From assembly GCA_030606485.1 (NCBI GenBank), contig JAUWGH010000003.1, positions 186,001-250,000 on the forward strand: 64,000 nt of DNA, given 5' to 3'. Under the pieces are notes generated by a model. That model saw only the letters and a program-made list of their open reading frames with translations, did not search any database and was not told the DNA's origin. The stretch is from Promethearchaeota archaeon. GTDB lineage: Archaea > Asgardarchaeota > Lokiarchaeia > Sigyniarchaeales > SOKP01. Both the position numbers and the translations under genes were made by a program. Positions 29,837 through 33,759 of the stretch are shown piece by piece. Every line of letters starts with the position of its first letter. The stretch's first letter is position 1.

Positions 29837-31801
29837 ATGGAAACTGAAGAAATAAGAATATTTGTAGCAGTATGTCGTTGAGGGATAAATATTGGTGGAT
29901 ACATCGATACAAAAGCTTTAGCTGAATATGCCAAAACATTACCTAATGTTGTAGCATCAAAAGACTATATAAGTATGTGTACTGAAGGTGGTGCAGTATT
30001 TATAAAAGACAACATGGAAGAGGCCAATTGCAATAGACTAATAGTTTGTGCTTGAACCCCTATAACACATGAACCTGTATTTAAGAAGGTTCTGGAAGGA
30101 ATTAATATTGATCCATCTTATTTAGAATTTTGCAATATTAGGGAGCATTCATCATTAGTCCATATGCATGATAAAGAAGGAGCATTAAAGGTGGCAAGAG
30201 ATTTGCTTCGTTCTGCTGTAGCAAGAGCCTTAAAATTAGAAAAAGTTCTAATTAGAGAGGTTGATGTAATCGATAAGATATTAATCATTGGTGGAGGAGT
30301 TGCGGGATTAAAGACTGCTATTGAATTAGCAGATGAGTATTTTGATGTATTTTTAGTAGAAAAAGAACCCACAATTGGTGGGAAGATGGCGATGCTTGAC
30401 AGAACATTCCCTACTGACGATTGTAGCATTTGAATTTTAGGACCTATAATGTTAGATGTTGCCCGAAATGAAAAAATTAGATTATTTACATATTCTGAAG
30501 TAACAGATATCTCAGGATATATAGGGAATTTTTCCGTTGAAATTACAAAAAAGCCAAGATATGTGAAGGATATTTGCAATGGCTGCAGTGCATGTATGGA
30601 TGTTTGCCCCGCGCGTGGTTATAACGAATTTAATCTTGGATTAAATCCTAGACCTGCGATTTACATTAGTTTTCCACAGGCAGTTCCTTCACTTGCCCAA
30701 ATTGATATGGATAAATGCATCAAATGTGGCTTATGCATTGGGGCCTGTGAGTTAGAAGCAATAGATTTTGACCAAAAAGCTGAAAAAATAAATGTAAAAG
30801 TAGGAACAATATCTGTAGCTACTGGTTGGGACGAATATATTCCAGAGGATGGTTACTTAGGATATAATAAATATGATAACGTAATTACTCAATTACAACT
30901 TGAACGAATTTTGGCACCAAATGGACCAACAATGGGCCAACTTGTAAGACCATCTGATGGGAAGGGACCCAAAAGGATTTTATTTATACAATGTGTTGGC
31001 TCACGAGATTTTAATAGAAACGTATATTGTTCAAGTGGAGTATGTTGTATGGTAAGTATAAAGAATTCAAAACTTATTAAACAGCATTACCCAGATGCAG
31101 AGATTACCGTTGCTTACATGGATATACGTGCATCGGGAAAATATTATGAGGAATATTATACTGCTTCTAGAATAGCAGGTGTAAAGTTTTTAAGAACTAA
31201 TATTTCTCGAATTGAAGAGGTTCCTGAAACGAAAAACTTGAGAATTTTCGTCCAAGATACATTAAGAGAATCTTTAGGTGTTCAAGAGATGGAATTTGAT
31301 TTAATTATTTTATCTGCTGCTATGATACCTAATTATGATATATTATCGCTGAATAAAATATTAAAATTGGAAGTTTCTCCTGATGGTTTTTTCAAAGAAA
31401 CACACCCAAGATTAGAACCAATAAATACTAAAATTCCAGGTATATCGCTTGCAGGAGTTTCTCAAGGGCCAAAGTCTATTGCTGAATCGATTATGCAAGC
31501 CGGGGGATCTGCAGCTTCAGCTGGGAAATTAATGATACGCAAAAAATACAAAATAGATCTGATAATTGCAGATGTCGACAAGGAAAAATGTAGCAAATGT
31601 GGATTATGTATATTAAACTGTTCATATAATGCTATTGATATGACGGAAGATGGAGCTGAAGTTGATGATATTAACTGTAGGGGTTGCGGTTCATGCCTTT
31701 CAAATTGTCCAAGTGAAGCAATAACTTTAAGATATTACAGAGAATCACACTATGAAGCCCAAATTGATGCATTATTAAAAGAGTTTGAAGAGGTGGCGTA
31801 G
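29837..31801 (+). CDS. hdrA: HdrA-like flavoprotein with three in-frame UGA (selenocysteine)
   Basis: A 654-residue heterodisulfide reductase subunit A read through three TGA codons at 29879, 30053 and 30431. They give Sec15 (VCRUGINIGG), Sec73 (VCAUTPITHEP) and Sec199 (DDCSIUILGP). Each stands where HdrA proteins have Cys. The FAD fold is at 148-182 (IIGGGVAGLKTA). Four iron-sulfur motifs start near residues 247, 294, 584 and 613, for example CIKCGLCIGAC and CRGCGSCLSNC. HdrA is the electron-bifurcating flavin subunit of Hdr complexes, and Sec-containing HdrA is known in methanogens. UGA is an ordinary stop elsewhere here (hisS). The frame is open with full homology between the UGAs, so a pseudogene is unlikely. 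The ATG is preceded by AAGG. A strong GGAGG further up (29793) has no standard start nearby. mvhD follows 5 bp later. Confidence 0.9.
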
Positions 31802-31806
31802 AAAGA

Positions 31807-32223
31807 ATGGAAAATTTAAAAATTCTGGCTTTTCTTTGTTTGAAATGAGGATATGGGGCAGCTGATATGGCTGGGACGATTCGAGCACAATATCCTACCA
31901 CAATTAGACCAATTAGGGTAAACTGTACAGCAAGAGTAACTCCAAGCTTAATCATGAGATCAATTGGTAATGGAGCCGATGGTGTTTTAGTAGTTGGATG
32001 ATATCCAGGTGAATGTGATTATGAAATTGGGAATAAAATTGCTTTAAAAAATGTGGAATACGTGCAAGAAATATTAGAAGTTATTGGTTTTAGCCCAGAG
32101 AGAGTATTTATGGAGTATTGTAGCTCAGCGGAAGGAGATAAATTCCAAAAAACTGCAATAATAACTTCGGAAAAGATTAATAAGCTTGGAAAAAGTCCCC
32201 TCAACAAATTAAAAACCGAATAG
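31807..32223 (+). CDS. mvhD: MvhD/VhuD-like electron-transfer subunit with two in-frame UGA
   Basis: A 138-residue MvhD-family protein read through two TGA codons at 31846 and 31999. They give Sec14 (FLCLKUGYGAAD; family CNWCxYxxAD) and Sec65 (VVGUYPGECDYEIGN; family GCHPGDCHY). MvhD holds a [2Fe-2S] cluster and links a hydrogenase or formate dehydrogenase to HdrA. The second Sec position is a Sec site in methanogen VhuD. It begins 5 bp after hdrA and is clearly in its operon. No hydrogenase, hdrB or hdrC gene is adjacent, so its partners must be encoded elsewhere. A candidate SECIS hairpin lies 28 bp after the stop. Confidence 0.9.
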
Positions 32224-32250
32224 AATGAATAATATGAATAAATTTTAGTC

Positions 32251-32290
32251 GTATTATGACTTCCTATCGCAATAGGATTCGGAATTATAC
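32251..32290 (+). promoter_or_regulatory. candidate SECIS element in the hdrA-mvhD 3' UTR
   Basis: A 40-nt hairpin. The outer stem GTATTAT/ATTATAC has one T.T mismatch. Next come tandem G.A/A.G pairs (TGAC at 32257-32260 opposite GGAA at 32281-32284), a small asymmetric loop, and an apical six-pair stem TCCTAT/ATAGGA closed by CGCA. The G.A tandem is the hallmark of eukaryotic and Lokiarchaeota-type SECIS cores. Position after the UGA-containing genes fits archaeal selenoprotein mRNAs. It is shorter than eukaryotic elements. Confidence 0.6.
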
Positions 32291-32436: not shown

Positions 32437-33759
32437 ATGAAAGAGAGAGATAAACAAAATTTAATCGAATCTGCAAATAAAAAATTAAATAAAGCAGAAA
32501 GATTTTTCGAAATTGAGAATTATAATAAAGCCGCGAAACATTTCAAAAAAGCTGGAGAAGATTTCTTTAAAGTTGGGGAATATGATGCTGCTGAAAAAAT
32601 CTTTTCAATGGTAAGCAAATCTTATGAATACAGCCAAGAATATGAGAACATATCAGATTATTACAGGAAAGCAGCCAATGCCAGTTTAATGATAGATGAG
32701 TTTAATAAGGCAGGGCAAAGTTTTCAATTAGCGGCAAAATATGCTTTAAAGAAAGAAAGGTGCAAAGATCGAGATTTTAATGCATTGGTTTGTAGTAGTT
32801 TTTCATATTTCTGTTTTTTTTTATTGGGACGACAAGATAAAGGGTTAACATATATAAAATCAATAAAAGTCAAGGTGGATATGGATTCTTTTAGAGAGAA
32901 CATATTAACTCAACTAATAAAAAACATAACAACTGCAATCATTGAGAAAAATATTGAATCCCTGGAGGAAATTGAAAATAACCTAGAGAAATACAAATTT
33001 AGAAGGGGAGAATTACGATTAATAAAATTTGTATTACTTTTAGCTTATACTAATATTTCAATAAAAAATCAGCTAAATTTTAAAAAGGATAATTTCACAA
33101 CTGATGAAAAAATTGATTGTTCTCTTGATATTAATACAAAACCTTTACTTAATTTGACAGAAGATAAAGGTTTGAATTTTGAAATCAAAAAACTAACTTT
33201 TAATAATATAAGAATTACCGCTTCAAATAATTTATCAATAATAAGAAGGCCACAATTACCAATCGAATTGAATAAAGGAGAAAAAATGAATTTAAAGTTT
33301 AAGGCCGTTTCAAATTTTCCTGATCCAAAATCATTTTTTGGGCCAATATTAATAACTTCAAAAATAAATGAACTTTTAACATTTTATATAAAATCAAAAA
33401 TACAACATTTAAAGATTAGTTCTCCTCCTACGCAACTTGGAGTTTATTTTAAAAATTTAAGACCTCCATTAATAAATCAAACTTTTCCAATGGAGATAAC
33501 CGTTTCTAATAAAAGCACTGGAGAAGCTTTAGAAATTGAAATTGAACTAGAATTCCCTAAGGAATTAAAAGTTATGCGCGGGACAACTAAAAAACAATTA
33601 TATTCAATCAGACCAAATGAAGAGATAAGATGGGAAATTCAAGTTAAGCCACTTGAACCAGGTGAATTTGATATAAATACTACAGTAAAATATAATGATA
33701 GTGATAATAACATTATTGGTCCAAAATCAAAAGCATATCCAATAAAAATAAAGTTATAA
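32437..33759 (+). CDS. TPR-like helical repeat plus C-terminal beta-domain protein
   Basis: A 440-residue protein with no signal peptide. Residues 1-205 are TPR/SNAP-like helical repeats (KAERFFEIENYNKAAKHFKKAGEDF is one; YDAAEKIFSMVSKSYEYS another). Residues of about 245-440 look like two beta-sandwich domains, with LPIELNKGEKMNLKFKA and FPMEITVSNKSTGEALEIE, then LEPGEFDINTTVKY. They resemble CARDB/Ig-like or adaptor appendage folds. Such an arrangement recalls intracellular trafficking adaptors, but similarity is by general look only. The gene is single, between the Hdr operon and an opposite-strand phosphorylase. Confidence 0.65.
   Translation: MKERDKQNLIESANKKLNKAERFFEIENYNKAAKHFKKAGEDFFKVGEYDAAEKIFSMVSKSYEYSQEYENISDYYRKAANASLMIDEFNKAGQSFQLAAKYALKKERCKDRDFNALVCSSFSYFCFFLLGRQDKGLTYIKSIKVKVDMDSFRENILTQLIKNITTAIIEKNIESLEEIENNLEKYKFRRGELRLIKFVLLLAYTNISIKNQLNFKKDNFTTDEKIDCSLDINTKPLLNLTEDKGLNFEIKKLTFNNIRITASNNLSIIRRPQLPIELNKGEKMNLKFKAVSNFPDPKSFFGPILITSKINELLTFYIKSKIQHLKISSPPTQLGVYFKNLRPPLINQTFPMEITVSNKSTGEALEIEIELEFPKELKVMRGTTKKQLYSIRPNEEIRWEIQVKPLEPGEFDINTTVKYNDSDNNIIGPKSKAYPIKIKL

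What the first reader, a model, noticed from the sequence alone, without database searches (positions are those of the whole stretch)
29837..32223. Five-selenocysteine HdrA-MvhD operon
hdrA reads through three TGA codons (residues 15, 73, 199) and mvhD through two (14, 65). All five fall at positions that are Cys in the families, and homology continues across each. UGA is a normal stop in neighbours such as hisS and vapB. Known Sec-containing HdrA and VhuD proteins usually have a single Sec each, so this density would make an extreme redox module. Standard gene callers would break hdrA into pieces and miss mvhD.
Basis: partly seen in the sequence, partly recalled or inferred. Interest (0 to 1): 0.85.

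Follow-up and report, generated by a model that had tools for sequence, protein, structure and literature searches.

The report
Five-selenocysteine hdrA-mvhD operon, branched SECIS
In a Lokiarchaeia genome, two neighbouring redox genes are read through five UGA stop codons that almost certainly insert selenocysteine, apparently under the control of one RNA element after the second gene; this is usual for the lineage, but the RNA element has a third arm missing from the published models I could read.

Summary
hdrA (29837-31801) has three in-frame UGAs and mvhD (31807-32223) two. Each sits where HdrA or MvhD homologues have Cys. The genome carries tRNA-Sec, SepSecS, EFSec, a PSTK-like kinase and Sec-type SelD. 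Across about 100 related Lokiarchaeia operons, UGA at these sites swaps essentially only with Cys codons; 100 of 104 MvhDs share the same two UGAs. Homologues in PDB 9SFI have X (read as Sec) at three of the five sites.

So the module is real but not extreme. Two Secs per VhuD is known, an adjacent hdrA-frhD pair sharing one SECIS is published for Asgard archaea (PMC11227280), and the window's hdrA pattern occurs in 21 of 101 relatives. This genome alone has four such operons (21 UGAs).

Less expected is the SECIS at 32216-32282. It folds as a three-way junction: lower stem P1, the known AUGA_GA arm P2, and a third hairpin P3. All 18 pairs show two-sided changes over 61 sequences. P3 is also seen in this genome's selD, in Jordarchaeia and in a methanogen, but not in the Asgard models I could read. 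One such element would serve five UGAs up to 2.3 kb upstream. Mariotti 2016 was not readable, so P3's novelty is provisional.

The parts
29837..31801 (+). hdrA, 654 codons with three in-frame UGA; N-terminal [4Fe-4S] domain, FAD/thioredoxin-reductase-like domain, two ferredoxin modules
29879..29881 (+). UGA, Sec15 (C-x-U, N-terminal cluster motif)
   Evidence: 85 U / 11 C over 96 relatives with a residue there
30053..30055 (+). UGA, Sec73 (fourth Cys of the N-terminal cluster motif)
   Evidence: 26 U / 70 C
30431..30433 (+). UGA, Sec199 (CSIU, flavin domain)
   Evidence: 97 U / 1 A; X in PDB 9sfi chain A at the aligned position
31807..32223 (+). mvhD/vhuD/frhD, 138 codons with two in-frame UGA
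31846..31848 (+). UGA, Sec14 (CxxU)
   Evidence: 102 U / 2 C; X in PDB 9sfi chain K
31999..32001 (+). UGA, Sec65
   Evidence: 100 U / 4 C; X in PDB 9sfi chain K
32216..32282 (+). SECIS element, three-way junction, overlapping the mvhD stop codon (32221-32223)
   Evidence: MFE structure; covariance model hit 72 bits; 18/18 pairs with two-sided changes
32216..32221 (+). P1 5' strand CCGAAT, pairs with ATTCGG 32277-32282
32225..32228 (+). SECIS core AUGA, opposed by GA at 32258-32259
32229..32257 (+). P2, eSECIS-like upper stem of 9 bp with A-rich apical loop
32263..32276 (+). P3, third hairpin CCTAT-CGCA-ATAGG, with a loop G that is invariant in 61 sequences

Best explanation
This is a two-gene selenoprotein operon of a Lokiarchaeia (Asgard) archaeon. 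The ribosome inserts selenocysteine at three UGAs in hdrA and two in mvhD, using EFSec and Sec-tRNA-Sec. One SECIS just after mvhD is the only such element found and most probably directs all five insertions, at distances of 223 to 2343 nt. The SECIS is a three-way junction whose AUGA_GA arm forms the kink-turn-like core also seen in eukaryotic SECIS, with an extra 3' hairpin, P3, of unknown role. The products are the HdrA and MvhD subunits of a flavin-based electron-bifurcating complex. The Secs replace conserved, probably cluster-binding cysteines along the electron-entry route (MvhD [2Fe-2S], HdrA N-terminal [4Fe-4S] and the flavin domain), where they probably tune redox potential or resist over-oxidation. 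Shown here by sequence: the read-through frames, the Sec/Cys exchange, the machinery genes and the covarying RNA structure. Inferred: Sec insertion itself, shared use of one SECIS, cluster ligation and the redox role.
For: Frames and families. Machinery: tRNA-Sec C2:189906-190018 at 47.1 bits; SepSecS 486.9 bits; SelB/EFSec 263.8 bits; PSTK-like kinase 140.8 bits, below that family's cut-off; SelD with one UGA, 184.2 bits. Site exchange over 101 hdrA and 104 mvhD: only U or C at hdrA 15, 48, 73 and mvhD 14, 65. Four hdrA-mvhD pairs with in-frame UGAs in this genome (3, 3, 3 and 4 in hdrA; 2 each in mvhD). SECIS: window MFE is the junction, z -2.13; 91.9% of cells paired against 72.7% shuffled and at most 47% slid; 18 of 18 pairs with two-sided changes; P3 96.8% paired with 4 of 4 pairs covarying. 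Another genome (G002) has a junction SECIS after hdrA as well as after mvhD. PDB 9SFI has X at the HdrA-199, MvhD-14 and MvhD-65 equivalents. Published: Asgard hdrA-frhD pairs share a SECIS (PMC11227280).
Against: No proteomics or 75Se data. The reported archaeal range between UGA and SECIS is about 70-1500 nt (PMC9499178), and M. jannaschii fdhA has its SECIS in the 5' UTR, perhaps for that reason (PMC2933860); here hdrA's UGAs sit at 1.8-2.3 kb. A lokiarchaeal vhuU SECIS did not work in M. maripaludis (PMC11881835). The count alignment was fitted to the model, which favours that structure; slid and shuffled controls do not fully remove this. That the four Cys of the N-terminal motif are cluster ligands is inferred from invariance, not read from coordinates.
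Confidence: 0.9

Rival explanations
1. UGA is reassigned as a sense codon genome-wide (as in codes 4 or 25), so there is nothing specific about these genes.
For: Several UGAs are read through in adjacent genes.
Against: UGA ends 6 of 37 large ORFs in the window; UGAs here occur only at Cys positions; Cys-only hdrA paralogues without UGA exist in the same genome; the Sec pathway is present.
Confidence: 0.01
2. The genes are decayed pseudogenes or carry assembly errors.
For: Standard gene calling breaks them into pieces.
Against: The same sites carry UGA in some 100 operons from 70 or so genomes, exchange only with Cys, and the rest of each frame has no TAA or TAG.
Confidence: 0.01
3. UGA in hdrA is decoded by another route than the distal SECIS: an unrecognised element in the coding sequence or 5' UTR, or Cys inserted at UGA, with the SECIS serving mvhD only.
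For: hdrA's UGAs lie 1.8-2.3 kb from the SECIS, beyond the archaeal range reported in the readable papers; in G002 a second junction SECIS sits right after hdrA.
Against: No second element of this model was found in the window operon or in most of the others; PMC11227280 reports shared SECIS as the rule in Asgard archaea; eukaryotic SECIS act at up to 5.4 kb (PMC2933860). The 5' UTR was not searched with other SECIS models.
Confidence: 0.07

Closest known systems
Lokiarchaeal / Asgard selenoproteins HdrA and FrhD (MvhD/VhuD) with a shared eSECIS-like element (Huang 2024, PMC11227280; Mariotti 2016, not held)
   Same: Gene order, very short gap, shared 3' SECIS with AUGA_GA core, Sec at Cys positions.
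   Different: The published model covers core, upper stem and apical loop, with a lower stem and internal loop but no third helix; here a covarying hairpin P3 turns the element into a three-way junction. Per-site Sec counts in HdrA are not given in the readable text.
Methanogen Vhu-Hdr selenoproteins (HdrA, VhuD; PDB 9SFI)
   Same: Sec-equivalent positions HdrA-199, MvhD-14 and MvhD-65 (X in 9SFI).
   Different: Additional Sec at 15 and 73 (and 48 in relatives) in the HdrA N-terminal cluster motif; methanogen SECIS uses the GAA/A motif. The Methanothermococcus okinawensis 3' UTR also shows a P3-like hairpin (L108).
HdrA2 (HdrA-MvhD fusion, NF040770)
   Same: The two proteins match its two halves, model positions 1-645 and 647-773.
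   Different: Two genes instead of one; score below the family cut-off; Sec at five sites.
Eukaryotic SECIS type I
   Different: The three-helix junction with P3; no SBP2 reported in archaea.

Membership tests
Archaeal selenoprotein gene | Complete archaeal Sec pathway in the genome | tested here: met
   tRNA-Sec, SepSecS, EFSec and Sec-SelD above cut-off; PSTK-like kinase at E 7e-41 but below its cut-off
Archaeal selenoprotein gene | In-frame UGA aligned to Cys in homologues, homology on both sides | tested here: met
Archaeal selenoprotein gene | Selenium in the protein | not testable with these tools
   needs 75Se labelling or mass spectrometry
Asgard eSECIS-like element, type I (PMC11227280) | GA_[G/A]A core, upper stem 7-15 bp, apical loop 8-20 nt, in the 3' UTR | tested here: met
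   window: AUGA_GA, 9 bp, 11-nt loop; the element starts at the mvhD stop codon
Asgard eSECIS-like element, type I (PMC11227280) | Only two helices with an internal loop, as in the published text and figure legend | tested here: not met
   third helix P3 in the 3' side of the internal loop, 96.8% paired, 4/4 pairs covary; the figures themselves could not be read
HdrA | N-terminal cluster domain, FAD domain, inserted and C-terminal ferredoxin domains | tested here: met
   near full-length match to solved HdrA chains; Fer4 and FAD families
MvhD/VhuD/FrhD | FlpD domain with conserved Cys set | tested here: met
   PF02662 123/123 positions; Cys/Sec at 11, 14, 40, 65, 70 in all 104
Electron-bifurcating Hdr complex | HdrB, HdrC and an electron-donor module acting with HdrA-MvhD | tested here: inconclusive
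   no partner gene beside the window operon; sister operons are followed by FrhB/FdhB-like genes, and C1 also by a CCG protein

The most novel reading that the evidence does not exclude
Archaeal hdrA-mvhD SECIS elements are three-way junctions. The third arm, P3, with its near-invariant UGY loop, is an undescribed and ancestral part of the Sec insertion signal shared by Asgard archaea and methanogens. It may be the docking site for the unknown archaeal SECIS-binding factor, or what allows one element to serve five UGAs over 2.3 kb. In these proteins Sec also ligates the N-terminal HdrA iron-sulfur cluster.
Probability: 0.35. Interest if true: 0.75.

Novelty: new variant of a known kind. Interest (0 to 1): 0.48.

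Why it matters
No SECIS-binding factor is known in archaea, and Asgard SECIS elements are used to argue how the eukaryotic system arose. A covarying extra arm with an invariant loop base gives a concrete, mutable target for finding that factor and a new structural character for linking methanogen and Asgard elements. An operon with one detectable element and five UGAs is also a natural test of how far and how often one SECIS can act in archaea. Because gene callers break these genes, Hdr-based energy metabolism is under-annotated in Asgard genomes.

Tried and rejected
TIGR03149, tried by mistake for a Sec gene, is NrfC and is not used. A genome-wide search with the SECIS model found only three of the four operons, plus weak hits lying inside coding regions; the fourth, C1, scores 28.9 bits in the locus search, and the model does not find the SECIS of other selenoprotein families. 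ARAGORN does not call the tRNA-Sec; Rfam does, at the threshold. RNAalifold on the group-2 alignment does not draw P1 because the columns are out of register, and P3 pairs in that group do not vary, so group 2 supports P3 by conservation only. Single-sequence folding is not convincing for C10 (z -0.14); C1 folds with P1 and P3 but not a clean P2. My three-way-junction scanner left roughly a quarter of the loci without a call; several of these were recovered by the covariance model. Two folds used wrong coordinates and are discarded: L059 and L103 (searches show the right regions).

Full report
What was checked. The two frames are as described: hdrA 29837-31801 with UGA at residues 15, 73 and 199, and mvhD 31807-32223 with UGA at 14 and 65, both ended by TAG and separated by five bases. 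With UGA read as Cys the products match HdrA and MvhD over almost their full length. Under the standard code hdrA falls into pieces and no mvhD ORF of 60 aa is listed. UGA is a normal stop elsewhere in the window, ending 6 of 37 large ORFs.

The organism and its machinery. The window lies in a 3.75-Mb genome rated 100% complete. A genome of the same order, G007, appears to be a named MAG: its contig C11 and JAFGBS010000034.1 (Candidatus Lokiarchaeota archaeon Zod_Metabat.1044) have the same length, 176,726 bases, and the same match. I therefore place the window in Lokiarchaeia, by inference. The genome holds tRNA-Sec, SepSecS, EFSec/SelB, a PSTK-like kinase that stays below its family cut-off and a SelD with one in-frame UGA. 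SepSecS, tRNA-Sec and EFSec lie within 7 kb on contig C2.

How unusual it is. The genome has four hdrA copies with in-frame UGAs (3, 3, 3 and 4) and four mvhD copies with two each, 21 UGAs in four operons, besides Cys-only hdrA copies. Over 83 genomes of the class, 74 have a close mvhD and all but four of the listed matches carry two in-frame UGAs. I fetched 100 operons and tabulated each site. In hdrA, site 15 is U in 85 and C in 11, site 48 is C in 75 and U in 21, site 73 is C in 70 and U in 26, and site 199 is U in 97 and A in one (an outlying Cys-type copy, L267). In mvhD, sites 14 and 65 are U in 102 and 100 of 104 and C in the rest. The window's hdrA pattern is the second commonest, 21 of 101; 46 have Sec at 15 and 199 only; one has all four sites as Sec. 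Readable literature agrees in outline: hdrA and frhD always adjacent and sharing one SECIS in Asgard archaea (PMC11227280), two UGAs in methanogen vhuD (PMC9622424), two Secs listed for FrhD/VhuD and one for HdrA in a 2026 review (PMC13188914). From memory, the abstract of Mariotti 2016 says three of five lokiarchaeal families have several Secs; that paper is not held.

Where the Secs sit. The five sites are cysteines conserved in HdrA or MvhD. PDB entry 9SFI has X at the positions aligned to HdrA 199 (chain A) and MvhD 14 and 65 (chain K); I read X as Sec because the aligned residue is Sec in this family, but the entry's own annotation was not seen. HdrA sites 15, 48 and 73 together with Cys13 are the only invariant cysteines of the N-terminal domain, and that domain binds an iron-sulfur cluster in solved HdrA (PMC12054007), so I infer that Sec binds that cluster. 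In a published Hdr structure electrons pass through clusters that include those of the HdrA N terminus to the [2Fe-2S] of the MvhD homologue and presumably on to the bifurcating FAD (PMC12350162), so the Secs would line the electron entry. The window operon has no Hdr or hydrogenase neighbours; the C1 and C10 sister operons are followed by FrhB/FdhB-like proteins with ferredoxin domains, and C12 by a protein with a weaker FrhB match.

The SECIS. Directly after mvhD, overlapping its stop codon, the RNA folds by minimum energy into a three-way junction: P1 CCGAAU/AUUCGG, P2 AUGA-[AUAAUAUGA...UCGUAUUAU]-GA, and P3 CCUAU-CGCA-AUAGG. The same plan with different pairs is visible at the C12 and C10 copies and, less cleanly for P2, at C1. 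A covariance model from nine relatives found 61 elements at E below 0.001 in 61 loci. On their alignment all 18 pairs have two-sided changes, 91.9% of cells are paired against 72.7% in shuffles and 30-47% when slid, and P3 alone is 96.8% paired with all four pairs covarying. The alignment is fitted to the model, so the percentages lean towards it. A scan that does not use the model gave 68 of 103 loci a junction score above that of every one of 206 shuffled controls. The P3 loop has an invariant G followed by C or U. A second family of sister operons shows the same plan with an unrelated P1 (AUGUG/CACAU). In G002 one junction lies after hdrA and another after mvhD. The selD 3' end of this genome also folds as a junction, as does a Jordarchaeia hdrA-mvhD 3' end, and a Methanothermococcus vhuD 3' end shows P2 with GAA/A plus a P3-like hairpin.

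Comparison. The published Asgard model consists of quartet core, upper stem and apical loop, with lower stem and internal loop described as without highly conserved nucleotides (PMC11227280). A review says lokiarchaeal SECIS has one apical loop whereas most archaeal ones have two (PMC9499178). The third arm is thus a variant relative to what I could read; the original figures could not be consulted. In the window the five UGAs lie 223, 376, 1791, 2169 and 2343 nt from the AUGA; three of them are beyond the 70-1500 nt given for archaea in PMC9499178.

Mechanism and grade. Most likely EFSec with Sec-tRNA-Sec decodes all five UGAs under one SECIS; P3's role is open. Sec insertion, single-SECIS use and cluster ligation are inferred and need protein and RNA experiments. 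The operon itself is a new member of a published kind; the SECIS architecture is what makes me grade it a variant.

Noticed in passing
L001:1501-1613 (-), G000:C2:189906-190018: The tRNA-Sec gene has about 24 extra bases in the anticodon loop, probably an intron; a review reports a 31-nt T-arm intron for lokiarchaeal tRNA-Sec (PMC9499178).
   Followed up: partly
L059 hdrA (G000:C1:56646-58571): This copy has a fourth Sec at a ferredoxin-type Cys (reference position 297, CVEUYAC), a site where the other 97 sequences have Cys; a different ferredoxin Cys (595) is Sec in L230.
   Followed up: partly
L253:2143-2224 and 2654-2737 (G002): Two three-way-junction SECIS elements in one operon, one after hdrA and one after mvhD.
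   Followed up: partly
L278:2500-2595 (selD 3' end, G000:C1): The selD SECIS (type II, with apical ministem) also folds as a three-way junction with a CACCU-GUG-AGGUG hairpin.
   Followed up: partly
L057:11076-12377 (+): The C10 Sec operon lies next to a divergent seryl-tRNA synthetase gene, the enzyme that charges tRNA-Sec.
   Followed up: no
window 32437-33759 (+): 440-aa protein downstream of the operon with no Pfam match at E 1e-5.
   Followed up: no
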